Assembly: GCA_020881915.1 (NCBI GenBank)
Contig: JAJFPB010000005.1
Span: 124,001-188,000 of the forward strand
Source of the DNA: Paramyrothecium sp. XJ0827
Taxonomy: Eukaryota; Ascomycota; Sordariomycetes; Hypocreales; Stachybotryaceae
DNA: 64,000 nucleotides
Direction of reading: 5' to 3'
Shown: piece after piece, positions 11,768 to 50,114 of the stretch
Layout of the letters: each line of letters opens with the position of its first letter
Position numbering within the stretch: position 1 is the first letter of the stretch
The notes under the pieces: model-generated
Database searches by the model: none
The model's input: only the letters and a program-made list of their open reading frames with translations
Told to the model about the DNA's origin: nothing
Position numbers and translations under genes: made by a program

Positions 11768-13425
11768 ATGTCACACTCAATTCAAGAGGCTAATATTATT
11801 CTTGCACTTCAAGCCATTCAAAAGGACCCAAAATTAAGCCTGCGACGCGCTGCAAAGGCCTACCAGATTCCATATAGTACTCTGCTTGATCGTAAGCACG
11901 GCAGACAATCCCGACGCGATATTATGGCCAATTCGCGTAAACTACGGTATCTGATCTTGAGGAACAGACAATAGTTCAATATATCCTTGATCTAGATATG
12001 CGAGGGTTTTCACCCCGGCTTTGTGGTGTTGAAGAAATGGCCAATCGACTGCTTGCTGAGCGCGAGATGCCTCCTGTTGGTCAACGCTGGGCTTCGAATT
12101 TTATCAGGCGCCAACCAGAGCTCAAGACGCGTTTCTTTCGCAGATATGATTACCAGAGGGCCAAATGCGAAGATCCAATCGCAATAAACGCGTGGTTTTT
12201 GCTCGTGGAGAACATAATCGCGAAGTACGGTATAAGATCAGATGATCAGTACAACTTTGATGAGACTGGCTTTATGATGGGCGTGATTATGAGCGGTATG
12301 GTGGTTACAGGCTCAGAAAGGCGTGCAAACCCTAAAAGGTTCAGCCCGGAAACCGTGAATGGGTCACCGTAATTGAATCGATCAATGCCGAAGGGTGGGC
12401 GCTGCCGCCGTTCATCATTGTTGCAGGCCAATATCACCTCTCTAGCTGGTATCGCGAAAGCAACCTCCCCCGATTGGGCTATTACAACCACTAAAAATGG
12501 CTGGACCGACAACGAGACGGGCCTCGAGTGGCTAAAACACTTCAATCGGCATACAATCAAAAGATCAAATGGTGCCTATCGTCTCCTGATCCTTGACGGG
12601 CATGAGAGCCACCATTCGGTCGCTTTTGAGGATTTCTGCAAGGAGAATAAGATTATCACGCTCTGTATGCCGCCTCATTCATCTCATCTACTCCAGCCGC
12701 TAGATGTGGGCTGCTTTGGGCCGCTGAAGAAGGCTTATGGTCGAGAAATAGAGCATTTGATCAAGTGCTCTATAACACACATTTCCAAGACCGAGTTCTT
12801 TCCCGCCTTCCACGCCGCACATCTAGCCACGATGACTAAGAACAATATTCGGGGAGGGTTCAAAGGCGCCGGACTTGCTCCTTTAGATGCGAACTATGTG
12901 ATCTCGAAGCTTGATATTCGGTTACGAACTCCAACGCCTATTATCGATGAGCCGGAGCTTCCTGCCCCTTGGACTTCAAGGACCCCAAAGACAGTCAGGG
13001 AAACTGAATCTCAATCTGAATACCTAAGAAGACGAATTAGAAGACATAAAAGTAGCTCCCCAGCATCAATTATTGATGCCTTGAATTCATTTTCTAAGAG
13101 TTTACTTGCAAATCAGCATAAGATGGCACTACTAGAGGCTGAGAACCGCGATCTTCGAGAGGCAAATGAGATACTAAGCCGGCGCCGGAGGGAAAAAAAG
13201 AAACGCCTACGGGATGGAGGGACAATGACTGTAGGGGAAGGTCAGGCATCAATTGATCAAATAGATGTAGATACGCAGGTAGTGGCCGAATCGTCGAGGC
13301 GAGGTGGTCAAGGAAGGTCAGGGCAACCAACCCAACGGCGATGTGGTGTATGCGGCAAGCCCGGCCATAATGTACGAACATGTCAGGCAGAGATAGAGGT
13401 ATCTGGACAAGAGTATAGCGATTAG
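11768..13425 (+). pseudogene. Transposase, frameshifted (HTH/CENP-B-like, DDE, zinc knuckle)
   Basis: The coding sequence starts at ATG 11768 and ends at 13425 but is split over frames. Comparison with copy 2 points to a 5-nt insertion near 11945-11949, a 1-nt loss near 12338 and a 2-nt loss near 12468. Domains in order: an N-terminal helix-turn-helix (SLRRAAKAYQIPYSTL), a Tc5/CENP-B-like segment (PPVGQRWASNFIRR), and the DDE catalytic core. The core has FDETGF (Asp at 12259), LILDGHESHH (Asp at 12595) and LQPLDVGCFGPLK (Asp at 12703). A coiled-coil-like stretch follows, then a C-terminal CCHC zinc knuckle CGVCGKPGHNVRTC. LQPLDVGxFGPLK is characteristic of the Fot1/pogo group. Unlike copy 2 it has few stop codons, so indels rather than RIP disabled it. 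Confidence 0.88.
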
Positions 13426-14893: not shown

Positions 14894-17029
14894 TTATCTT
14901 ATACTACTAGTTAACATATTTGTTCTAATGCTCTCAACAAATTCATAGATTTCTGTTTTCGGCTCTAGCAGTAATGGCGGCCCACATTGCACGTGTACAT
15001 CACCTAAGGCGACTTTTCCGCATATCACATTAACCGTCCATTTCGTCAGGCCCCCGAAGGTAGCAAGCTGCTTAGTTCCTCCTTTAAGTTCGTCCGAAAA
15101 TGCAGACTCTTCAGGAATGCGGTCATATGTGATCGTCACAGGAAGAACCACAAAGTGTGCTCCAGTTGACTGGAGACTTCGTAGGACTCCGCGTTTTCCT
15201 GGCAGTATGTCGCCAGTCCGGCTCCGTTGTCCCTCAACGAAGAACATGAAGCTGTCCCCGTGGTTCACAAGCTCTTTAAGCTGTGTGTCAAGTTGCTCGT
15301 CAGGCTTGCCTGTTCCTCTTACGACGAAAATTGTCCTGAATTGACGACACAGCCAGCCTACAACAGGGATCCGCGAGAATTCCTCGCTTGCCAGGACTCT
15401 TGGTAGTGGAATATTGAGCTCGGGTCGACTAAAGAAAAGGTAAGAGCATACAACTGAGTCCATATAGCTCCTGTGCGTAGGCACAATCACAATGTGTGTT
15501 TCGTCGCCAGGCAAAGCGCCCACGGCGTTTAGAAAAGAGTGTTCGTCGAAAGTTGCTTTGTCGAAAACTTTGCCAAACGTTTTCTTTACTATTTTTGCTG
15601 CTGCAACAGTCACCACATTAGTGGCGGGTCGTTGTCGTGACCATCGCAGATCTCCGCTCGTGTCTTGTGCTTGGCTGCCAGCAAAGACTGACTTTGTCGC
15701 ATCTCGTTGCAGCAGATACACGCGCACACCTCGACATATCACTCGTAAATACGCGGCTGCATGGAAATCAGGGTCGAGACATGGCTTGGCTGCCTGGAAG
15801 TCGTAAGTGTGGTGTGTAAAATGTTCGAATACTGCGTTTGCATTTCTCTCCATATTGCTCGCCTTTTCGACGCGGCGCAACTGAATTTCGTCTTGCTGAA
15901 TTTTGGCCAAACCCTTGGCCAAAGTTCGTGGAATTCGATGATGAATCATATCATGAAGTCGATAACGCAAGGCTCTTTTGTTGCCGACATGCCGTATCTT
16001 AGGTTCACGGAGCACTGGATGCTGAGTAAAGTAGTCCTGAGTTATGGAACACGAAGTAGAAACTCTCATCCCGTGCTTGATGCCTGAGACAACATGGACA
16101 AATCGAGGCTCCTTGCAAGAGGCAGAAAACAACAAAGCTTCGTCGATAAGTCGATTCGCCACAATGTCGACTGGTACCACATCCAAAATGGTATTTGGGT
16201 CGGCATTGAGAACTCGTACGCAGCCTGTACTGACCCCCGCAACAAGGCCTGCAAAAGCGGCAAAGCTATCAATCCAGCCAGGAAAGGGGTACTTCAAACT
16301 TGCTGAGATGATGCTTGGGCGAACGATTGCCAGTGGCACCGTTCCCTTGTGCTTCACAAGGAGGTGTTCAGCTAGCCATTTCGCCAGCGTGTAGAGGTTG
16401 GGATGACCAGAATCTTTCAAGATCTCATCGACAGGCGTCTTACCCTCTTCTAACAATGCGCAGATACCATTGACTGAGTCGGAGGGATGTAAAAGCTCCT
16501 CAATGGGATTATTGGAGTGTGGTGTTGCATAGGCTGTTGATGTATGGACCAACTGCTGCAACCCCGGGCATGACCGTGCCAGCTCCAGTACATTCAATGT
16601 GCTGGTGATGTTGTCTGAGATTGTTTCATGGGCAGCTGACGGCGAGAAGGCAACTGAGCCAGCGCAGTGAATAATGTGTGTCGTCCGGAGCCGCAGATCA
16701 TCGTAGATGGATGCGTTAATGCCACAGTGCCCCTTGCTAAGGTCGGCAGAGATAACATCTAGTGTAGATGCCCAGTCTTTCGGCAAGCGGGAGAAGCATA
16801 GCGATGGAGCCACATTTTGGAGAAACCTCTCTTCTGCAGTACACTTTTCTTGAGGACGAATCAGAACCGCAATCCTTTCAAAGAAGAGGGAGTCCTGGCG
16901 GCGAAGCAGTTCTTCGAGGACGACCTTGCCTAAGAAGCCCGTCACTCCCGTGACCAAGACGGTGCCGTTCATTGCCCCTGGTGACTTTCCCTGATATGTG
17001 CTTAGGGATAGACTGTTAATGAAGGGCAC
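14894..17029 (-). CDS. Fatty acyl-CoA reductase fused to GPAT/DHAPAT-type acyltransferase
   Basis: An uninterrupted 711-residue bifunctional protein. Residues about 20-410 are an alcohol-forming fatty acyl-CoA reductase of the Male-sterility/NAD_binding_4 type: TGVTGFLG (27-34), HCAGSVAFSP (121-130), and the active-site Tyr213 and Lys217 in YTLAK, then IVRPSI. Residues about 480-711 are a PlsB/GNPAT-type acyltransferase with all four motifs: HRSYMD (519-524), IFVVRG (567-572), FVEGQRSR (597-604) and PVTITYDR (630-637). The motifs resemble DHAP acyltransferase more than PlsC. Expected activities are acyl-CoA to fatty alcohol, and acylation of DHAP or glycerol-3-phosphate. The next gene on the same strand, 407 nt upstream, is an alkyl-DHAP synthase, which uses exactly these two products. 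The C-terminus SIR is not a standard peroxisomal PTS1. Met20 is an alternative start. Confidence 0.92.
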   Translation of the reverse strand: MPFINSLSLSTYQGKSPGAMNGTVLVTGVTGFLGKVVLEELLRRQDSLFFERIAVLIRPQEKCTAEERFLQNVAPSLCFSRLPKDWASTLDVISADLSKGHCGINASIYDDLRLRTTHIIHCAGSVAFSPSAAHETISDNITSTLNVLELARSCPGLQQLVHTSTAYATPHSNNPIEELLHPSDSVNGICALLEEGKTPVDEILKDSGHPNLYTLAKWLAEHLLVKHKGTVPLAIVRPSIISASLKYPFPGWIDSFAAFAGLVAGVSTGCVRVLNADPNTILDVVPVDIVANRLIDEALLFSASCKEPRFVHVVSGIKHGMRVSTSCSITQDYFTQHPVLREPKIRHVGNKRALRYRLHDMIHHRIPRTLAKGLAKIQQDEIQLRRVEKASNMERNANAVFEHFTHHTYDFQAAKPCLDPDFHAAAYLRVICRGVRVYLLQRDATKSVFAGSQAQDTSGDLRWSRQRPATNVVTVAAAKIVKKTFGKVFDKATFDEHSFLNAVGALPGDETHIVIVPTHRSYMDSVVCSYLFFSRPELNIPLPRVLASEEFSRIPVVGWLCRQFRTIFVVRGTGKPDEQLDTQLKELVNHGDSFMFFVEGQRSRTGDILPGKRGVLRSLQSTGAHFVVLPVTITYDRIPEESAFSDELKGGTKQLATFGGLTKWTVNVICGKVALGDVHVQCGPPLLLEPKTEIYEFVESIRTNMLTSSIR

Positions 17030-17436
17030 GAGCTATAATCGACGGTAGGTGGCGCTTCATCGATCCAGGGCCCGGGGTGTTGATTTGAGAACTAGACAAG
17101 GACTCTGAAGTTCGTCTACGTGGCACACTTTTGTCTTTCTCGATGAGCACCTCGAGCTAGGCTTCAAGATTGAGTGCACAGCTGATCTTGGGCCCGCAAT
17201 AATAATTTGAATGTGTACCAATACTGGATAGTCCGCAGTTGACGGTGCAAAGTATGACCGTGTTCTTACGCAATCAAACAGTCTCCCAAAAAGGCATCGT
17301 ATCCTTTTTGGGCAAGTCTGGCCCCAGACCTCCCCTATCATTCACGAATGTACTGTACAAAGACCCCTGTCCCCATGTGGTAGCTTCACCGTTAGGCCCA
17401 ATATCTACCGTGAGCTGAGCCCATGTCAGCATGGTC

Positions 17437-19284
17437 TCAGTGCAGGGCTCCAGTTCCAGACTCAGCGCTTGCACCAGGAAAGATATTGCGTGGATCCTGG
17501 ACAGATTTGGCTCGCTCGCGGTATTCTTGTGCGGCTGGCGACAGGACCCTTGGCAAAAATTCGCGACGCAGGGTGCCAACTCCGTGGTGGTGGGATACCG
17601 AGCCTCCGCAAAGCAAGATCTCGTCGCGTGCCGCTTCTTCCAGGGTCGAGTATGTCTTGGTCGCCTCCTTGTTGTCTGTATCGCCCGCGAAGATGGCCAG
17701 ATAGAAGTAAATGCAGACGCCTGTGTGATAGACCTGGCTGATCCTCGAACTAATAAACGGCTTGCCCGGCAAGTTCCGGGCGACATGCTCGTCAAGGCAG
17801 CGCTGCTTGACCCTGCGGATCAGCTCGGGTGCCGCGGTCCAAGTACACGACGTCTCAAAGGACTCGGCGAGTATGCCAAGCGTCATGGCAAAATCCCGAA
17901 TGTAAGCAATCGCAAACGTCATCTCGTAGCCTCGCTGGCCATTTGCGCCTCCAGCATTCATGCCACCATGGCGGCTCATGTGCCTATTGGTGATCTTCTG
18001 TTGTTCGCGCACTTGATTGACAGTACCCTCAAACACGAGCGTGCAAGCGACCATCTTCTCAGGGTTGAACTTGCGAATCTTCGTTACGTACGCCTTCTCG
18101 AGACGGCCCTTCAAAGCTTTGAGTCCCGTTGACGGCGGCTTGAGGGCCATGCTGAACTGGAACTGCGTATTGTCGACGAGTCTCACGCTGGCTGGCAGAG
18201 TATCGCCGCTTCGCGCGAGGTCGTTGACGAAGGCGTACCCAGCCTCGAATGATGGGAACAGAATTGAGCCGTAGCGCTGAACTTCGGGCAGGGGAAACAC
18301 TTTGACGACGGCAGATGTAATGATCCCCATCGATCCTTCAGAACCAAAGACTGAAAATCTCATGTCGGTGCCCACGCTCTCGCGCGGCGGCGTAGCATCC
18401 ACAGCACGAGTGAAGACGCCATCCAAAGTGACCACCTCGACATCAAGAACGATGTCCTCAATGTTGCCATATTTGTTCTTCTTCATTCCACTCGCCTTGG
18501 TTGCAATCCACCCTCCGAGTGTTGAGAACTCGACGCTGTCCGGCTCATGGCCGAGCATCAAGCCATGCTCAGCCAAAGCCGTGACAATGTGTCTTCCTAC
18601 TGCGCCAGCCTCAATGCGCGCTTGCTGATTTGCCTTGTCAACCCATAAAACACGGTTCATTCGGCGCGTGCTCACGGCCGCTATGGCTCGCTTCTCGTTC
18701 ACCGGGCAGGTAAGAGCGCGGCTGACATTTGTTCCGCCACCATAGGGTAACAGGGCAACGTCAAACTCGCGCGCTGCCTGGACAATAGCCTGGACTTGCT
18801 CTGCAGAGTTGGGATACAGGACAAGATCCGGAATGCGACCGATGGAGGTGCCGTAGTTGACCTCACACATGTCTTGCAATGAATGGCCATGACCGCACCG
18901 AAGTCTTTGTTCGGGATCGAGGACGATCTGGTCATCAGCTAGAGTCTTGTTTATCGAGCTCATGAACGCTTCGTTGCGAATAGCTGGCGGTAATTCCAAC
19001 AGTGCCGGACGTGTGGGTTTTCGCTGCACTTTTGGAAACTTGATATTCATATGGCTCTCAAACCATGGCAAGACGAAGGGTAGTTTCTGGCCACTCGTGC
19101 CGTACCGCTTGCCTGATATCTCAAGCTGCCCATCTTCGTTGAGGATATAATCCGTGTCGGTAAAACCCCAAGTGTAGAGGTTCTCTACGCCGTCGTCGTG
19201 AGCTTGGCCCTTGGGGACGATCCTGGAGCTTGTGTCTAGCTCGGATGAAACGTCGCTGGTACAGGTGGTGATTGACTTTGTCAT
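17437..19284 (-). CDS. Alkyldihydroxyacetonephosphate synthase (alkyl-DHAP synthase)
   Basis: A single-exon flavoenzyme of 615 residues that replaces the acyl chain of acyl-DHAP by a fatty alcohol, forming the ether bond of ether lipids. The FAD-binding (PCMH/VAO-type) domain has PDLVLYPNS, PYGGGTNVSRAL (180-191) and a GHEPDSVEFSTLGGWIATKA segment. KNKYGNIEDIVLDVEVVT (269-286) and the active-site stretch YHTGVCIYFYLA (519-530) match animal AGPS closely, as does the histidine motif SVSHHHGVG (562-570). These are hallmarks separating AGPS from D-lactate dehydrogenases and glycolate oxidases. No PTS2 or standard PTS1 is visible, so peroxisomal location is not shown. It is on the same strand as the reductase-acyltransferase fusion and divergent from the aminotransferase, consistent with a cluster. 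Alkyl-DHAP synthases are uncommon in ascomycetes. Confidence 0.93.
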   Translation of the reverse strand: MTKSITTCTSDVSSELDTSSRIVPKGQAHDDGVENLYTWGFTDTDYILNEDGQLEISGKRYGTSGQKLPFVLPWFESHMNIKFPKVQRKPTRPALLELPPAIRNEAFMSSINKTLADDQIVLDPEQRLRCGHGHSLQDMCEVNYGTSIGRIPDLVLYPNSAEQVQAIVQAAREFDVALLPYGGGTNVSRALTCPVNEKRAIAAVSTRRMNRVLWVDKANQQARIEAGAVGRHIVTALAEHGLMLGHEPDSVEFSTLGGWIATKASGMKKNKYGNIEDIVLDVEVVTLDGVFTRAVDATPPRESVGTDMRFSVFGSEGSMGIITSAVVKVFPLPEVQRYGSILFPSFEAGYAFVNDLARSGDTLPASVRLVDNTQFQFSMALKPPSTGLKALKGRLEKAYVTKIRKFNPEKMVACTLVFEGTVNQVREQQKITNRHMSRHGGMNAGGANGQRGYEMTFAIAYIRDFAMTLGILAESFETSCTWTAAPELIRRVKQRCLDEHVARNLPGKPFISSRISQVYHTGVCIYFYLAIFAGDTDNKEATKTYSTLEEAARDEILLCGGSVSHHHGVGTLRREFLPRVLSPAAQEYRERAKSVQDPRNIFPGASAESGTGALH

Positions 19285-19776
19285 CGTGCCTCGTGTTACT
19301 ACTTTTCAGTGTTCAATAGGAATTTAGAGGAATTTGCTCTGCAAACATCGTCAACTCCTGAGCAAGATTTGCTCTCCTGTCACCTAATACTGAAAAACTA
19401 GTGCTTCAAGCGCCACGAAGTACTGTACAAGCCAGGCCCCTGGCCAACGGTCAGCCCGCATGAATCTATAAGGACCCTGCATCCAGCTGCTGGGGCTCTT
19501 GACCAAATACGGGTATGTCATCAAATAATTCCAGGCCGATACGGGTTTCAGTGTAATTTCGGGCGGAAGGAGTTCTCCTGAATGGATATCAAGGACGGAC
19601 TTGTATGACATTGAATCATGCACTGGCCGTATCGTATTGATTGATAACGTCAGAGCATTAAATGCTACGCGAGACCGACAAGGCTTTCTTGCCGCATCTA
19701 TTGATTATCATCTTAGGTCATATCAGCAGCTGCGGATCAGATTATCCCCACAATCAAACTTGGCATTCTCATCACG
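19285..19776. promoter_or_regulatory. Shared divergent promoter region of AGPS and aminotransferase genes
   Basis: This 492-nt gap separates the head-to-head alkyl-DHAP synthase (minus) and DegT-type aminotransferase (plus), so both promoters must lie here and co-regulation is possible. A minus-strand open frame of 79 codons (19384-19623) ends in SWMQGPYRFMRADRWPGAW but has no recognisable family; it could be a small gene or chance. No specific binding site was identified. Confidence 0.5.
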
Positions 19777-21063
19777 ATGCCCCGACCAAGCCTTGTCTAT
19801 GCTCGAAAACACTTCGACATAAGATGGAATGATCTTATTCGCGGTGGCCTCTATGCCCTCCGCTCCAAGAGACCTCATGCAGAGGGAGCAGCTGAGCAGG
19901 GTTTTGATGAGGTCTGGGCTCCTTCACAAACTCTTGTAACTTTGTCAGTGCGATCGGCATTTGACCTGCTATTACAAGCATGTGCCTTTCCTGCGGGGAG
20001 TGAGATTATCATCTCGGCCGTTACAATCCCGCATATGGTTGCTATTGTCAAAGCGCATGGACTCGTTCCAGTGCCCGTTGACCTGCAAGAGTCAGATGCG
20101 AGCATCTTGGCAAGGGATGTGGAAGCGCTCATCACTCCACGAACCAAAGCTATACTTATCGCGCAGCTGTTTGGTTTCCGCCATTCACTCACGTCCATCT
20201 CGATCATTGCACAGAAGAATGGCATTTTGCTGATAGAAGACTGCGCCCAGGCTTTCTGTGGCATCAACTTCACTGGGAGTCCAGAGGCTGCGGTCTCCAT
20301 GTTTAGCTTCGGGCCAATCAAGACCTGCACTTCCCTTGCGGGCAGCATCTCAACGGTGCGTGTAGCGAGCCTTCTGAGTCAGATGAAGGACTTGCAAGCA
20401 GGGTATACTTTGCAAAAACAAAGCACTTTTTTGAAGAAGACGGTAAAGTATACTGCGTTCAAGGGCATCACGCAAAGCCGGCACTGCTACGGCACTTTGA
20501 TATGGACTCTTCGACGTGGTGGAAGAGATCACCATGCAGCCATCACCAAACTCAGCCACAGTCTGGCTGCGGACGTGGATCTTTTGCAACAGATCCGGTT
20601 CAGGCCATCGGTTGCACTTATTGAGTTGATGCGACACCGTATCTGGCACTTCGATCCTCAAGCTCTGCAGCATCGCAGAAGCCGTGTTGCGGACATTGCC
20701 GACAGACTCCCCACTCATCTTCAGCCGATTGGCTATGGAAAGACTTCAGTTGAGAAACAACTTGCATGTCATTATTGGATATGTCCGGTTCGAGTCAGCA
20801 ATCCTGCTTTAGTCTTGGATCGCCTCTTAGAAGCCGGATTCGACGCCGCGGCTGGAAACGCAAGTCTCACTGTTGTACCCGCACCTAATTCCGACTCCTC
20901 GCATTCTAAAACCGGCAAGTCACAGTCTATAAATGGCCCCAAGCGAGCGGAGCGTATGATGGAGGAAGTTATTTACCTGCCAATCGACAACAAGTTGGAT
21001 AACCGGGCAGTTGACAAGATTGTACGAGTACTGTTAGACACCCAGCCGAAAGTGGTTGAGTGA
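19777..21063 (+). CDS. DegT/DnrJ/EryC1/StrS-type PLP aminotransferase
   Basis: A single-exon protein of 428 residues in the DegT aminotransferase superfamily, which usually transaminates a ketone on a sugar or cyclitol using PLP. Visible features are SVRSAFDLLLQA near the N-terminus, AGSEIIISAVTIPHMV (73-88), VPVPVDL, TPRTKAILIAQLFG (120-133), LIEDCAQAF with the PLP-binding Asp155, and SMFSFGPIKT with the Schiff-base Lys182. The C-terminus EEVIYLPIDNKLDNRAVDKI is also typical. Both catalytic residues are present, so it should be active. The gene is divergent from alkyl-DHAP synthase with a shared promoter region, suggesting joint function. No sugar-nucleotide genes are near. Its ketone substrate could therefore be a lipid precursor such as (alkyl-)DHAP, which is inference only. 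Confidence 0.85.
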   Translation: MPRPSLVYARKHFDIRWNDLIRGGLYALRSKRPHAEGAAEQGFDEVWAPSQTLVTLSVRSAFDLLLQACAFPAGSEIIISAVTIPHMVAIVKAHGLVPVPVDLQESDASILARDVEALITPRTKAILIAQLFGFRHSLTSISIIAQKNGILLIEDCAQAFCGINFTGSPEAAVSMFSFGPIKTCTSLAGSISTVRVASLLSQMKDLQAGYTLQKQSTFLKKTVKYTAFKGITQSRHCYGTLIWTLRRGGRDHHAAITKLSHSLAADVDLLQQIRFRPSVALIELMRHRIWHFDPQALQHRRSRVADIADRLPTHLQPIGYGKTSVEKQLACHYWICPVRVSNPALVLDRLLEAGFDAAAGNASLTVVPAPNSDSSHSKTGKSQSINGPKRAERMMEEVIYLPIDNKLDNRAVDKIVRVLLDTQPKVVE

Positions 21064-22620: not shown

Positions 22621-24549
22621 CTAGTGGTTATCTCGAGGAAGAGGGAATGCTTGAGCTACACGCTGAAATTGAACAGCACGCTTCAAGACCATACCCCCAC
22701 TTAGTCCACCAGTCTCTCGTCGGAACAGGTCTTGCCATGGGGTGTGGCTGGGAGGAATCTTATATCCTCCTTCACTCTCGAGTTTTTGTCGACGAGATGC
22801 AAGCTCATCTTCTGCAACAAGCACATCAACTCTTCGCTTGTCCAGGTCGATGCGTAGCCTGTCACCGTCTCGGATGAGAGCGAGATTCCCTCCATCGGCA
22901 GCCTCGGGGGTTGCATTCAAGATAGATGGCGACCCGGAAGTGCCGGATTGTCGGCCGTCTCCAATGCAAGGCAGCTCCGTAATACCTTGTTGAAGCAATC
23001 TCGTTGGGGCATGCATGTTAACAACCTCGGCTGCTCCTGGGTAGCCCAATGGCCCAACACCACGCATAACGAGAATAGTCCTGCTGTCGATGCTGGCGCT
23101 GTCCAATCGCTCCTCATAGTCCTCTGGCCCATCGAAAACCACGAGCGGTCCCTCGAATGCATTCAGATCGTTCGGGTCCTCGAGGAAACGTCTCCGGAAA
23201 TCTGATGAAATCACAGAAGCTTTCATGACAGCGGAGTCAAACAAGGTCCCTTTCATGTGCAAGAACCCTGCGTTCTCTTTGAGGGGTTCAGAGACAGTCC
23301 TAATCGTCCGGCGGTCCCAAGTGTTCTTGCCTCTCACATTTTCCTCAACTCGTAGGCCGTTGCATGTCAAAACTTCAGGATGTGGTAAGAGTCCGGCGTC
23401 GAGAAGCTCTGCCATGACTGCCGGAAGCCCACCCGCACGATAGTACTCTTCCGCCAGCATCTCACCTGCTGGCTGCATATTCACCAAAAGCGGCACCCTG
23501 TAACCGATGTTGTCCCAGTCATCAAGATCAAGAGGCACACCGATGTGTTTCGCAATGGCGTTGAGGTGGATGGGGGCGTTTGTGCTGCCACCGATGGCAC
23601 TGTTCACCACGATAGCGTTCTCGAAAGCCTGCCGTGTCATAATGTCGGATGGCTTGCGGTCGTTGTGCACCATTTCCACGATGCGAACACCCGTTTCGTA
23701 AGACATCTGCGACCGTTGCCGGTAAGGAGCTGGAATAGCTGCTGAGCCTGGTAGCGCCATGCCTAATGCTTCCGCAAGAGCGTTCATGGTAGAAGCGGTA
23801 CCCATAGTGTTGCAATGCCCTACAGAGAGCACGCCACTTGTAATCATCTCTGACAACTCCTCTTCCGTGATTTCGCCTGAGGCGTGCAAGTCTCTGGCCT
23901 TCCAGAGGACACTGCCACTTCCTGCCCGCTCCCCTTTCCACCATCCATTCATCATTGGCCCTACGTTGAGGCAGATGGCCGGGATGTTCATGGTAGCAGC
24001 CGCCATTAAGCATGCTGGAGTTGTCTTGTCACAACCTGTGAGTAGTACCACGCCGTCAAAAGGGTAAGCATACAAGAGCTCCACGAGTGAGAGATATGAT
24101 AGGTTCCTGTCCAAGGTGGCAGTTGGTCGTTGCGCTGTCTCTTGAATCGGATGCGTGGGAAACTCCAAGGCTATGCCACCGGCCGTTCGGATGCCCTCAC
24201 GGACTCGCTTTGCGAGTTCAATGTGATGCCTGTTGCATGGCGCAATATCTGAACCGGACTGCGCGATGCCGATGATCGGCTTTCCTGAAGTCAACTCCTC
24301 CATGGTAAGACCGTAATTGAGGAAGCGGTCGAAGTAGGCATTTCGGATGCCATGATCATCGGTACGTCTGAACCAATTTGCTGAACGAAATTGTTTGCTC
24401 TTCTCCTGTGAGGCTTTTGATATTTTCTCCTCCAGTATCTTTGTTCTCGCTCGTAGCGTGGCCAGCTCGGCCTGGTAGTCCTCGATGTCACTAACGCGTC
24501 CGGATTCGCAGGTCTTGCTGCAACCCTCGCATGGTGCTTCGCAGCTCAT
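22621..24549 (-). CDS. IlvD/Edd family dehydratase with N-terminal Cys cluster
   Basis: A single-exon, 642-residue iron-sulfur dehydratase of the dihydroxy-acid/sugar-acid dehydratase family. The three cysteines of the family cluster site are seen as APCNRHH (C105), [10 protein letters not shown] (C173) and [11 protein letters not shown] (C246). Later motifs [38 protein letters not shown] and [11 protein letters not shown] also fit. The sequence around [16 protein letters not shown] resembles sugar-acid (arabonate/xylonate-like) dehydratases rather than branched-chain amino acid IlvD, and no mitochondrial presequence is seen. An unusual N-terminal extension carries C3, C7, C10 and C14, followed by a likely coiled coil (residues 21-50). 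The likely role is sugar-acid catabolism. It is 1.6 kb from the aminotransferase and on the opposite strand, so membership of that cluster is doubtful. Confidence 0.88.
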
Positions 24550-41776: not shown

Positions 41777-43694
41777 ATGGATCAGAATGCACACCTACGC
41801 CAGCGATACGATACCCTATCAGACGGCTGCATCAGACTACTATTACTCCAGCCTTCAGCTGATCGTAGGGCACGGATCAATTGTACGCTTGCGGCAGCCA
41901 AAATCACAGACCGGCCTTACGAGGCTCTCTCCTACGTTTGGGGTCAAGAAGAACCCAGCCACACTATCCTCGTCAATGGAGAGGAAGTGCTGGTGCGATC
42001 CAACCTTCATGATGCGTTAGAAGAGCTACGCTTGGCAAATCAGCAACGAACTCTGTGGGTCGACTCGATTTGCATCAACCAGTCAGATATCAGCGAGCGG
42101 AATTCCCAAGTCAAGCAGATGGGACTCATTTTCTCTTCGGCGACAAACGTACTCATCTGGCTGGGCCAAGGGAACAGCGACACAGAGGCGGCAATTGACT
42201 TCATACAAGGCCTATCGAAGCTTGATCCCACCACGGCTACGTCTATTGATAACAACGTCCTGCAACTGCAAGACCGCAAGAAGGTGTTCCGAGCGCTGGG
42301 CATGGTGCATGGGCTTGACAACTATGACGAGGTGGTCGGAGGACTAGTCAAGTTGATGGACAATGCCTGGTGGAAGAGGATCTGGACAGTGCAAGAGATC
42401 GTTCTCTCCAAATCTGCGAAATTAGTTTGTGGGACTAAATCCGCTTCCTGGAGCGACCTCAGCAAGCTGTCTGCGTTTGCCCTCCAAGTCTCTCATCACA
42501 ACGATGTGACTCCGTTTGGAAGGCCCATGGTCGAGGCAATCTTTGATGAGATTACTGGCCAAGTCCTTAAGCTCTACGTCGCAGTTGCAGTCCTTGACGA
42601 TCTATCATACGTGATCCTCAATGGATCGGACATCAGTCTCGAGCAGATATCTTGGCCTCAGCTGCTTTCTCGGCAGGCAACGGACCCGCGAGATATGATA
42701 TACGCTCTTCTAGGGCTATCGACGGAGAGAAATATCATTAATATTGACTACAACCAAAGCAAGAAGCAAGTATACATTAGCGCGATGAAAACCATGCTCC
42801 AATTTCATCACAAAGGGCTAGGCCCACTCCATTTCCTGCAAGAATGCTCGCATGAGCGAGATCCTGGTCTCCCTTCCTGGGTACCTGACTTCGGCATCAT
42901 TCACTCCAACAAGACAACCAACCTGGCTGTGAGTGGCATTGGAGCATCTTTGGTTATGAAGTCTTTATACAATGCGTCGCTTGGGGATACAAACTTTTGC
43001 CCGCCAAAATTTCATGAAGATGATGCGGTACTAGAGTTGGAAGGTGTGCTGGTAGACCAGGTTCAGAGTTTGGGTGCGATATGCCCTCGTTTCCCTCAGG
43101 ATTGGGCGAGACGGGACGCCCAGCTTCGGAATGTCCTCGACCAGTGGCTGGAGATAATTCCGAACGGAGATAAGGATTGTGTCGGTGGAGTATCATTCAG
43201 AGAAGCGTTCTGGAGGACGGTGACTTTTGATCTATCACTGACCGACAGAGACTATTTAGCTGGGAACCCGGATCGAAGAGACAGAAGACTTCCAAAAGGC
43301 TCACCTGGAATGCCCCCTACCACAGCAGAACAGGAAGCGGAATTGCGAGCAGGCATACTTGACGCCCCAGTTCCCAAGACTGTGCTTGAAAAGCTGGGCG
43401 GGAGACGGTTATTCGTCACGCGGCAAGGTTACGTCGGGCTAGGGCCGGCATCGTTGCAGGCTGGCGACGTTACCTGTGTTCTACGCGGTGGCCTCTTCCC
43501 CACCGTTGTGCGGGCGTTGAACAACAATCGCTACACTATGGTTGGAGAATGGTAAGCTCCACGAGATTCATTGTCATTTTCAGTTTGAGCTAATCGAGTT
43601 CGCCACTAGCTTTGTCTATGGAATCATGGATGGCGAAATAGTTGAAAGGATCAATAAAGGGGACTCTTCGTGGCAGTCTTTCTTTTTCGTCTAA
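41777..43694 (+). CDS. HET (heterokaryon incompatibility) domain protein
   Basis: Two exons, 41777-43551 and 43610-43694, give 619 residues. The HET domain occupies roughly residues 40-210, with YEALSYVWG, then LWVDSICINQ, RNSQVKQMGLIFSSATNVLIWLG and WWKRIWTVQEIVL. These blocks are diagnostic. The middle part contains SRQATDPRDMIYALLGL and LPSWVPDFG, which usually follow the HET domain, and the C-terminus has GECFVYGIMDGEI, completed by exon 2. HET proteins can trigger cell death after fusion of incompatible strains and are thought of as fungal innate-immunity-like factors; the trigger of this one is unknown. The intron (43552-43609) restores a C-terminus that would otherwise stop at MVGEW. 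Confidence 0.94.
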
Positions 43695-47593: not shown

Positions 47594-48360
47594 TGTCACT
47601 CTCTAAAAGACACATTTCAGCTTGAGGCACGGGACATGAGGGTGGGGGAGCGATCGGTTGGGATGGGCGATTATGAATCCGAGAATGCTAAGCAGAGGCA
47701 CAAACATCGACGTCGAAAGGTTACAAATATTTTTGAACCCTAATTGAGGTCGTCAATATCCGAAATATACAGTGCTTCTCATTTTATATCATGGCCGTCC
47801 CCTGTTGAATCACTCTCACGGGATTCCATGCAGAATAAGTTACATTTCAGGGTGTCCATGGAAGAACATGCTGCTGATGGTGTGAGGTGCGCTTATCGAG
47901 ATTTCCATACTAATTCGTCTTTTCAAAGCAAAGTTAAAATTCTGGCAGCAGGGATTCGGCAGAAAATCCGCCAAGTCGATGATATTGCGTCGAACTTCTC
48001 GTGTTCTTAGACAACGCAAACTGGAATGAACCTTACGTCGGGGAACTACATGGACAAGTCCGACGCAGATTCTTCCTAAGTTCATCCCCGCGATTTTTCC
48101 CCAATAACCAAGGGGTCCTTTTGTTTGAGTTGCCAGTTATTAGTTCATGGACAATGCCATTTCCCTGGGCTACCCAGTTCGCATTCAGCGATTGCACCCG
48201 CCAGCAAGATTTCTCGCTCGGAAACGAGGACTCCTGGAGTGCTTGTGCCCCTAGTAAACCTGTACATAACGTCCACACGTGACTGAACGGGCCGTGTTTG
48301 CCAAGTCAGACTAGTAACGTTAAAAGGCCGCTGGAAGTTAAGATAAGAACACCTAGACTA
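47594..48360. other. Intergenic region
   Basis: About 0.77 kb between the metalloprotease gene and transposon copy 2; no gene is recognised. The TA at 48359-48360 is the transposon target site. Confidence 0.4.
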
Positions 48361-48410
48361 ACGTGCATAATAAGCGAATGTCCCAGACAAGCGAATGTCC
48401 CAAAAATCCC
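48361..48410 (+). repeat. Left TIR of transposon copy 2
   Basis: A 50-bp inverted repeat beginning ACGTGCATAAT, with two AAGCGAATGTCCCA units separated by GAC. It pairs with 50171-50220, with one difference at base 9. Confidence 0.92.
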
Positions 48411-48458
48411 TCACCTTACATCCTAACCATTTAATCAATTAATTCTTAACAATTCAAT

Positions 48459-50114
48459 ATGCCAAACTCAAATAATAAGGCTAATATAATCCTTGCACTT
48501 CAGGCCCTTCAATTAAACCCAAAATTAAGCCTTCAACGCACTGCAGATATATATGGCATTTGCAGAAAGAAGCTAGGCCGTCATTAGCAAGGCATGCCTT
48601 TTCGACAGGATATTATAGCTAATTCGCGTAAACTATCTGATCTTGAGGAACAGATAATAGTTAAATATATCCTTGACCTAGATACATGAGGGTTTTCCCC
48701 CCGGCTTTGTGGTATTGAAGATATGGCCAATTAACTGCTTGCTAATCGCAATGCACCTCCTGTTGGAACGCGCTGGGCTTCAAACTTCATCAGGCAGCAA
48801 CCACAGCTCACAACACATTTCTTTCGCAGATATAACTATCAGAGAGCTAAATGCGAAGATCCAGTCGCAATAAACGCGTGGTTCTCGCTTGTAGAGAACA
48901 CAATCGCAAAGTACAGCATAAGATCAAATAATTAATATAACTTTAATAAGACAGGCTTTACAATAGGCGTTATTGCAAGTAGTATAGTTATTACAGGCAC
49001 AGAAAGGCATACAAATCCTAAAAGGGTTCAGCCTAGAAACCATAAGTAGGTTACAACAATTCAATCAATCAATACCAAAGGGTAGGCACTGCCGCCATTC
49101 ATTATCGTTGCAGGCCAATATCACCTCTCTAGCTAGTATTGCGAAAGTAACCTCCCGGCCAATTAGGCTATTGCAACTACTAAAAATAGCTAGACCAACA
49201 ACGAGACGGGCCTTGAGTAGCTAAAGCACTTCAATTGGTATATAATCAAAAGATCAAATAGTACCTATCGTCTCCTGATCCTTAACGGGCATAAGAGCCA
49301 TCATTCGGTCGCTTTTAAGGATTTTTACAAGGAGAACAAGATTATTACGCTCTATATACCGCCTCATTTATCTCATCTACTCCAGCCACTAGATATGGGC
49401 TGCTTTAGGCCGCTTAAGAAGGCTTATGGTCAAGAAATAGAGCATTTAATCAAATGCTCTATAACACACATTTCCAAGACCGAGTTCTTTCCCACCTTCC
49501 ATGCCACACACCAAGCCACTATAACCAAATTAAATATTCAGGGAGGCTTTAAGGGCACTAGACTTATTCCTTTAGATGCGAACCATATGATCTTGAAGCT
49601 TAATATTCGGTTACAAACTCCAACGCCTCCTATCGATGAGCCTAAGCTTCCTACCCCTTAGACTTTAAGAACCCCAAAGACAGTTAGAGAAACTAAATCT
49701 TAGTCCAAATACCTAAGAAGACAAATCAAAAGATATAAAAGTAGCTCTCCAGCATCAATTATTAATACCTTAAATTCATTTTCTAAGAGTTTACTTGCAA
49801 ATCAGCATAAGATGGCTTTACTAGAGGCTAAGGTCCAGGATCTTCAAGAGGCAAATAAGATACTAAGCCAGCGCCACAGGGAAAAAAAGAAACGCCTACG
49901 CAATAGAGGGACAATAACTGTAGAGGAAGGCCAAGTATCAATTAATTAAACGGATATAAATATACAGATAGCGGCCAAATTATCGAGGAGAGGTGGTTAA
50001 GGAAGGTCAGCGCAACCGAGGGAAAGGCGCTATGGTATTTGCAGTAAGCCCGGGCATAATACAAGAACATATAAGGCAGATATTCTAGCTGCTGGAGATA
50101 AGTATAGTAGTTAG
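48459..50114 (+). pseudogene. Transposase remnant, RIP-mutated
   Basis: The counterpart of the copy 1 transposase, from the ATG at 48459 (MPNSNNKANIIL) to about the TAG at 50112-50114. Many codons are changed to stops. Two catalytic aspartates are altered by G-to-A changes: FDETGF reads FNKTGF, and LILDGHESHH reads LILNGHKSHH, while the third (LQPLDMGCF) is kept. Even with the stops ignored it would be inactive. The longest intact stretch is 49395-49661 (88 codons). It lacks the indels of copy 1, so it shows the original frame. Confidence 0.88.

What the first reader, a model, noticed from the sequence alone, without database searches (positions are those of the whole stretch)
14894..21063. 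Candidate ether-lipid biosynthetic locus in an ascomycete
Seen: a fatty acyl-CoA reductase plus DHAPAT-type acyltransferase in one ORF, a full-length alkyl-DHAP synthase with the HHH and YFY active-site motifs on the same strand, and a divergent aminotransferase. Established: these are the enzymes that make fatty alcohol, acyl-DHAP and alkyl-DHAP, the committed steps of ether lipid synthesis in animals, Dictyostelium and myxobacteria. Inference: they form a working cluster. Ascomycetes are not generally known to make glycerol ether lipids, so either this lineage has an undescribed ether-lipid product or the set was gained by transfer.
Basis: partly seen in the sequence, partly recalled or inferred. 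Interest (0 to 1): 0.88.

Follow-up and report, generated by a model that had tools for sequence, protein, structure and literature searches.

The report
Fungal amino-ether-lipid gene cluster
A fungus carries, side by side, single copies of three genes whose relatives also sit together in another fungus and in some bacteria; they are predicted to build a fat whose chain is held by an ether bond and which likely also bears an amino group, a kind of lipid that fungi are not generally known to make.

Summary
In detail: intact, single-copy, uninterrupted ORFs for a FAR+DHAPAT-type acyltransferase (FARAT), an alkyl-DHAP synthase (AGPS) and a divergently transcribed DegT aminotransferase. Conoideocrella has all three on consecutive locus tags; Paramyrothecium has all three on one contig; Chlorociboria has AGPS and DegT on consecutive tags. 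AGPS and FARAT match the core of a bacterial ether-lipid operon (Myxococcus MXAN_1676/1675) in domains and order. The fungal AGPS is closer to bacterial (55%) than to guinea-pig (42%) AGPS; bacterial origin is likely, not proved (grouping with the animal sequence was not rejected). New point, the third gene: in 33 bacterial loci, FARAT is followed by an SDR (MXAN_1674 type, presumed ketone reductase) in 26, by a DegT aminotransferase plus a PlsC-type acyltransferase in 3 (one related group), by neither in 4, by both in none. The fungi carry DegT. Best reading: the ketone of alkyl-DHAP is aminated rather than reduced, giving 1-O-alkyl-serinol phosphate. Ether-bond formation rests on strong sequence evidence; amination is inferred from gene context and untested. 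No canonical peroxisomal signal was found in the fungal proteins checked.

The parts
14894..16972 (-). FARAT: fatty acyl-CoA reductase fused to a PlsB/GNPAT-type acyltransferase, 692 aa from the ATG at 16972 (frame open to 17029); lacks the C-terminal extension of the ~900-aa bacterial forms
17437..19284 (-). AGPS: alkyl-DHAP (alkylglycerone phosphate) synthase, 615 aa, upstream of FARAT on the same strand
19285..19776 (.). 492-bp intergenic region between the divergently transcribed AGPS and DegT genes, presumably a shared promoter region (inferred; no unusual RNA folding)
19777..21063 (+). DegT-family PLP-dependent aminotransferase, 428 aa; PLP lysine K182 and D155 invariant in 25 of 25 aligned members

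Best explanation
The locus encodes three enzymes that are predicted to make an amino ether lipid: FARAT would supply a fatty alcohol and acyl-DHAP, AGPS would swap the acyl chain for the alcohol to give 1-O-alkyl-DHAP, and the DegT aminotransferase would likely convert the remaining C2 ketone to an amine, giving a 1-O-alkyl-serinol phosphate (2-amino-2-deoxy-1-O-alkyl-glycerol 3-phosphate). Shown: three intact genes with their active-site motifs, their linkage in other fungi, and a DegT gene plus a PlsC-type acyltransferase in place of an SDR after FARAT in three bacterial loci. Inferred from family knowledge: the chemistry of FARAT and AGPS. Inferred from gene context only: that the SDR is the alkyl-DHAP reductase, that DegT aminates alkyl-DHAP, and any later N-acylation, which in the fungus would need an enzyme encoded elsewhere. 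Also inferred: AGPS and FARAT came into fungi from bacteria as a unit. Estimates: about 0.85 for ether-bond formation, about 0.5 for DegT acting on alkyl-DHAP.
For: AGPS and FARAT motifs intact. All three genes on consecutive tags in Conoideocrella and on one contig in Paramyrothecium; AGPS+DegT on consecutive tags in Chlorociboria. Bacterial FARAT loci: SDR next in 26 of 33, DegT+PlsC-type in 3 of 33, neither in 4 of 33 (3 of them cut by the contig end), both in 0. The SDR form is the M. xanthus MXAN_1676-1674 operon (passages). AGPS or FARAT lies beside this DegT in 5 of 80 bacterial loci, on several separate branches of the DegT tree. The own genome has only a weak relative of the operon SDR (27% over about 200 residues, E 2e-7). 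DHAP to serinol phosphate by transamination is known for Cj1437 and RtxA (passages). DegT folds as a fold-type-I aminotransferase.
Against: No activity, product or expression data. 75 of 80 bacterial DegT relatives examined are not beside AGPS or FARAT. The 3 DegT-bearing FARAT loci are one related group, so the exclusion of SDR and DegT may be a single event in bacteria. MXAN_1674 has no proven function. Solved relatives of DegT act mostly on nucleotide sugars (names). FARAT is not among the 120 listed rows for Xylariales and Chlorociboria. A fungi+guinea-pig AGPS clade is not rejected (p-AU 0.40). No PlsC gene is in the fungal set.
Confidence: 0.5

Rival explanations
1. Ordinary ether glycerolipids: AGPS and FARAT make alkyl-DHAP, an unlinked fungal reductase makes alkyl-glycerol-3-phosphate, and DegT modifies the head group, for example by making an amino sugar for a glycolipid.
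For: Solved DegT relatives are mostly sugar aminotransferases. Fungi have an acyl-DHAP reductase of their own (recalled). 75 of 80 bacterial DegT relatives are not beside AGPS or FARAT.
Against: No sugar-nucleotide gene was recognised next to the set among the window ORFs scanned (not every window gene was scanned). In bacteria DegT takes the position of the SDR in the AGPS-FARAT operon and none of 33 loci has both. Other members lie beside or overlap lipid acyltransferases.
Confidence: 0.3
2. The aminotransferase acts on the fatty aldehyde released by the reductase domain, giving a fatty amine, and the AGPS-FARAT pair is used for another lipid.
For: FAR enzymes pass through an aldehyde (recalled); ElbD was proposed to stop at the aldehyde (PMC9131029, passages).
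Against: AGPS-DegT pairs without a recognised FARAT beside them exist (L034, L039). Bacterial DegT also pairs with or is fused to FAD enzymes without FARAT.
Confidence: 0.08
3. A decaying or silent horizontally acquired cluster without a present product.
For: The window has a DDE_1 transposase ORF at 12373-13425 and a HET-domain gene, as accessory regions often do (recalled).
Against: All three frames are open and keep their motifs. The genes persist, with linkage, in named fungi whose AGPS are 54-78% identical to this one.
Confidence: 0.06

Closest known systems
Myxococcus xanthus MXAN_1676-1674 operon (AGPS / FAR1+GNPAT-like / NAD-dependent epimerase-dehydratase; PMC9131029, passages)
   Same: AGPS followed by a FAR+acyltransferase fusion on one strand; same domain order
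   Different: Third gene is an SDR there and a DegT aminotransferase, divergently transcribed, here; the fungal FARAT is about 200 aa shorter; MXAN_1676 loss had only a minor effect on ether lipids
Gemmatimonadota AGPS-FARAT-DegT-PlsC loci (L047/L192, L182; partly L048/L193)
   Same: Relatives of all three fungal genes in one cluster
   Different: Tandem operon with PlsC; its DegT is not one clade with the fungal DegT (p-AU 2.5e-62) and its AGPS and FARAT fall elsewhere in the trees
Dictyostelium FARAT (PMC7375469, passages)
   Same: N-terminal FAR, C-terminal acyltransferase; needed for an alkyl-ether storage lipid
   Different: Peroxisomal with C-terminal SKL; no such signal found here
Animal peroxisomal ether-lipid pathway (FAR1, GNPAT, AGPS, reductase)
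   Same: Same predicted first three chemical steps (outline)
   Different: Separate FAR and GNPAT proteins, peroxisomal, ketone reduced rather than (predicted) aminated
DHAP aminotransferases Cj1437 and RtxA N-terminal domain (passages)
   Same: Would be the same chemistry: amination of the C2 ketone of a DHAP backbone
   Different: Act on DHAP itself; sequence relation to this DegT was not tested
Serinol lipids of tunicates: didemniserinolipids, shishididemniols (PMC6264260, passages)
   Same: Natural lipids with a serinol unit
   Different: From animals, with other chains; that the serinol is ether-linked and that its biosynthesis is unknown are recalled, not read

Membership tests
Alkyl-DHAP synthase (AGPS) | FAD_binding_4 plus FAD-oxidase_C and full-length match to a solved AGPS | tested here: met
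Alkyl-DHAP synthase (AGPS) | HHH and YFY active-site motifs (motif roles recalled) | tested here: met
Alkyl-DHAP synthase (AGPS) | exchange of acyl for alkyl on acyl-DHAP | not testable with these tools
   needs an enzyme assay
FARAT / MXAN_1675 type | N-terminal FAR and C-terminal PlsB/GNPAT-type acyltransferase in one protein with catalytic motifs | tested here: met
FARAT / MXAN_1675 type | C-terminal extension of the ~900-aa bacterial forms | tested here: not met
   absent here, in Paramyrothecium and in Clonostachys; present in Conoideocrella; shorter bacterial forms are also common (length table)
MXAN_1676-1674 operon | AGPS followed by FARAT on the same strand | tested here: met
[quoted passage not shown]
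   DegT instead; only a weak SDR relative in the own genome
DegT/DnrJ/EryC1/StrS aminotransferases | fold-type-I aminotransferase with PLP lysine and aspartate | tested here: met
   K182 and D155 invariant in 25 of 25; model and structure matches; catalytic roles recalled
DegT/DnrJ/EryC1/StrS aminotransferases | nucleotide-sugar substrate of the characterised members | not testable with these tools
   needs an assay
DHAP-type aminotransferase | turnover of DHAP or alkyl-DHAP | not testable with these tools
   inferred from gene context
Peroxisomal ether-lipid pathway | PTS1 or PTS2 targeting signals | tested here: not met
   no pattern match in 14 AGPS, 5 FARAT and 8 DegT rows of the fungal groups, window included
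Plasmalogen pathway | PEDS1/CarF desaturase (PF10520) in the genome | tested here: inconclusive
   no match, but the control genomes did not ring either

The most novel reading that the evidence does not exclude
A third outcome for alkyl-DHAP in nature: instead of being reduced to a glycerol ether lipid it is aminated to O-alkyl-serinol phosphate, the base of an amide-bearing ether lipid shaped like ceramide phosphate. The pathway exists in several bacterial phyla as AGPS-DegT-PlsC clusters and has entered filamentous ascomycetes, where it is the route to a lipid class undescribed for fungi.
Probability: 0.42. Interest if true: 0.87.

Novelty: new variant of a known kind. Interest (0 to 1): 0.74.

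Why it matters
Reviews state that plasmalogens typically do not occur in fungi, with some exceptions reported (PMC9092451 and PMC9131029, passages). A conserved fungal AGPS-FARAT pair predicts that some ascomycetes make ether lipids. An aminotransferase in place of the reductase predicts a definite new product, O-alkyl-serinol phosphate, with a mass that lipidomics can look for, and offers a candidate biosynthetic logic for serinol ether lipids in general. It also gives a testable function to a DegT subfamily whose members are often named perosamine synthetase by automatic annotation.

Tried and rejected
Gemmatimonadota as donor of the whole three-gene set: rejected for DegT (fungi plus L047/L048/L182 as one clade, p-AU 2.5e-62) and not supported by the AGPS and FARAT trees, where L047 falls elsewhere.

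Vertical inheritance of AGPS with animals: disfavoured by scores (about 55% identity to the four bacterial-type rows compared, three of them named bacteria, 42% to guinea pig), but a tree holding the fungi and guinea pig together was NOT rejected (p-AU 0.40). With a single long animal branch this stays open, and unrooted trees do not show the direction of transfer.

A second AGPS or FARAT in the genome: other matches are far weaker. RNA structure in the divergent promoter: z -1.7, nothing. Viral contigs: two distant matches, 26% identity. Plasmalogen desaturase: inconclusive. I first read the 250-residue N-terminal part of L064 as a possible acyltransferase; it matches nothing else and is probably an over-long reading frame.
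Full report
WHAT IS THERE. The window is part of a 51.8-Mb genome in 15 contigs. Three long open frames fill 14894-21063. FARAT (14894-16972, -) joins a fatty acyl-CoA reductase domain to a PlsB/GNPAT-type acyltransferase. AGPS (17437-19284, -) aligns over 569 columns with guinea-pig alkyl-DHAP synthase at 42% identity. DegT (19777-21063, +) is a PLP-dependent aminotransferase; its model (mean pLDDT 89.2) matches perosamine synthase, ArnB and KabA structures, the 50 rows shown being 14-19% identical. Each gene has a single close copy in the genome. Motifs are intact. FARAT most likely starts at the ATG at 16972.

THE SET RECURS IN FUNGI. Each search listed its best 120 rows. Paramyrothecium foliicola has all three on one contig (78, 65 and 66% identity to AGPS, FARAT and DegT). 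Conoideocrella luteorostrata has DegT, AGPS and FARAT on consecutive tags QQS21_010334, 335 and 336, the order seen here. Clonostachys/Bionectria records hold all three families, read from several species. Xylariales sp. PMI_506 (one contig) and Chlorociboria (consecutive tags B7494_g6732, g6733) have AGPS and DegT; their FARAT is not among the 120 listed rows, which does not show absence. Thozetella is listed for DegT alone. Four unnamed contigs (lengths 4167, 10605, 33977 and 261085) hold AGPS and DegT; equal contig length is the evidence that the two lie together. In the AGPS tree the 17-row group that holds all six named fungal rows has support 99/96; in the DegT tree the 15 rows that I labelled fungal group at 100/100.

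THE BACTERIAL COUNTERPART. FARAT searches at 1e-40 matched 7 of 395 genomes in the phylum of L047 (Gemmatimonadota) and 38 of 377 in the phylum of L064. I took wider stretches for 33 genomes: loci L163-L193 plus L141 and L149. AGPS is seen in 30 of 33; in L149, L189 and L193 the contig ends inside FARAT, and the genome of L193 holds FARAT-N plus AGPS on another contig (L117). Beside the 3' end of FARAT lies an extended SDR in 26 of 33, a DegT followed by a PlsC-type acyltransferase in 3 of 33 (L182, L192, L193), neither in 4 of 33 (L186, L190 and L191 are cut at FARAT; L188 has another gene), and both in none. The SDR HMM was built from 16 of these same loci. L192 and L193 are the loci L047 and L048. 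The SDR form is the M. [quoted passage not shown] That it reduces alkyl-DHAP is my inference from its place and from the animal pathway, where a reductase follows AGPS. The three DegT loci are related to one another in DegT, and the two whose FARAT is in the tree are related in FARAT, so in bacteria this may be one event.

WHAT THE AMINOTRANSFERASE KEEPS COMPANY WITH. A scan of prokaryote genomes with the DegT alignment gave 178 relatives; the best 80 were kept. AGPS or FARAT lies beside DegT in 5 of 80 (L034, L039, L047, L048, L097); L034, L039, L047 and L048 also have a PlsC-type gene near (confirmed by Pfam for L034 and for L192, which is L047). In 7 of 80 (Acidobacteria) DegT is fused to a FAD_binding_4-type domain (Pfam on L069, the rest by similarity), and in 5 of 80 (planctomycetes) it follows a gene for the same kind of oxidase. 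In 3 of 80 (cyanobacteria L098, L103, L106) it overlaps PlsY, a glycerol-phosphate acyltransferase (name given from its sequence by eye). Of the other 60, two (L031, L070) have a weak PlsC-like neighbour (40 and 48 bits); for 58 of 80 I saw no such partner, many of them on short contigs. In Gemmatimonadota 7 of 395 genomes have this DegT at 1e-30; within 1.5 kb there is FARAT plus PlsC in 2 (L194, L195), AGPS in 1 (L196), a low-scoring PlsC-like gene in 2 (L197, L198; 27 and 22 bits), a doubtful 33-bit AGPS fragment in 1 (L199) and none in 1 (L200). The neighbours in L197 and L198 look by eye like a fatty-acid-type operon. One database protein (P0332, unnamed source) fuses an acyltransferase domain to DegT.

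MECHANISM. Family knowledge (recalled; outline): FAR makes fatty alcohol, the acyltransferase makes acyl-DHAP, AGPS exchanges acyl for alcohol and keeps the C2 ketone. In the usual operon the ketone would then be reduced. In the fungi, as in the three gemmatimonad loci, a DegT enzyme goes with the pair instead. Transamination of DHAP to serinol phosphate is a known reaction (Cj1437, RtxA; PMC11800397 and PMC3222319, passages), so amination of alkyl-DHAP is chemically reasonable. The product would be 2-amino-2-deoxy-1-O-alkyl-glycerol 3-phosphate; in bacteria the adjacent PlsC could acylate it. None of this has been tested on these proteins.

WHERE. Dictyostelium FARAT is peroxisomal and ends in SKL (PMC7375469, passages). 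No PTS1 or PTS2 pattern was found in 14 AGPS, 5 FARAT and 8 DegT rows of the fungal groups, window included, so a cytosolic or ER-side pathway is more likely.

ORIGIN. In the careful AGPS tree the 17 fungal rows lie within a 24-row set (94/93) with P0093, P0017, P0011, P0012, P0010, P0014 and P0099. P0010, P0014 and P0099 share contig lengths with FARATs P0127, P0166 and P0126, and in the careful FARAT tree a split with support 100/98 puts the fungi, P0154 and a six-row group that holds these three on one side of the 23 other rows. That points to joint acquisition. Not congruent: P0108 lies outside the 24-row AGPS set while its contig mate P0214 lies in the six-row FARAT group. DegT has one origin in the fungi sampled, from an unresolved branch. 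Its pairing with AGPS appears on several branches of the DegT tree, so it either arose repeatedly or is old and often lost.

LITERATURE. Full-text searches found no paper with DegT and alkyldihydroxyacetonephosphate, with serinol, ether lipid and aminotransferase, or with alkylglycerone phosphate synthase and ascomycete. Three papers hold alkyldihydroxyacetonephosphate synthase, fungi and ether lipid (listing only); by title none is about fungal ether lipids. One holds alkylglycerone phosphate synthase and horizontal gene transfer (listing; on archaeal wax esters). A wider search gave 97 papers, of which I saw 10 in the listing. Most subscription papers are outside the library.

VERDICT. A real, conserved and probably working ether-lipid gene set in ascomycetes; a new variant of the bacterial AGPS-FARAT operon with an aminotransferase where a reductase is expected. 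Ether-bond formation about 0.85 likely, amination of alkyl-DHAP about 0.5. The mended counts did not change these odds.

Noticed in passing
L069, L073, L074, L081, L093, L105, L107 (fusions, ~880-920 aa); L030, L040, L055, L063, L075 (adjacent genes): The same DegT subfamily is fused to, or follows, a VAO-type FAD oxidase in Acidobacteria and planctomycetes: possibly an oxidise-then-aminate module of unknown substrate.
   Followed up: partly
L098, L103, L106: In three cyanobacteria DegT overlaps a PlsY-like gene for glycerol-phosphate acylation.
   Followed up: no
L197, L198 with L202, L203: Two gemmatimonad genomes place DegT beside a weak PlsC-like gene and what looks like a ketosynthase/dehydratase lipid operon.
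   Followed up: partly
window 11998-13425: A DDE_1-type transposase ORF (12373-13425) with an abutting upstream ORF (11998-12372, not scanned), about 1.5 kb from the cluster.
   Followed up: no
window 22621-24549 (-): Dihydroxy-acid/sugar-acid dehydratase (IlvD/Edd family; NCBIfam NF009560, 930 bits, over its cut-off) next to the cluster; no link to it is known.
   Followed up: no
window 41777-43555 (+): HET-domain gene, PF06985 E 8.2e-34.
   Followed up: no
window 48001-50000: Local fall in G+C to 0.412 against about 0.49 for the window.
   Followed up: no
G000:C12:1058345-1059031 (own genome, outside the window): A reductase-type domain (PF07993) inside an open frame of 24,978 codons, the size of a giant peptide synthetase.
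   Followed up: no
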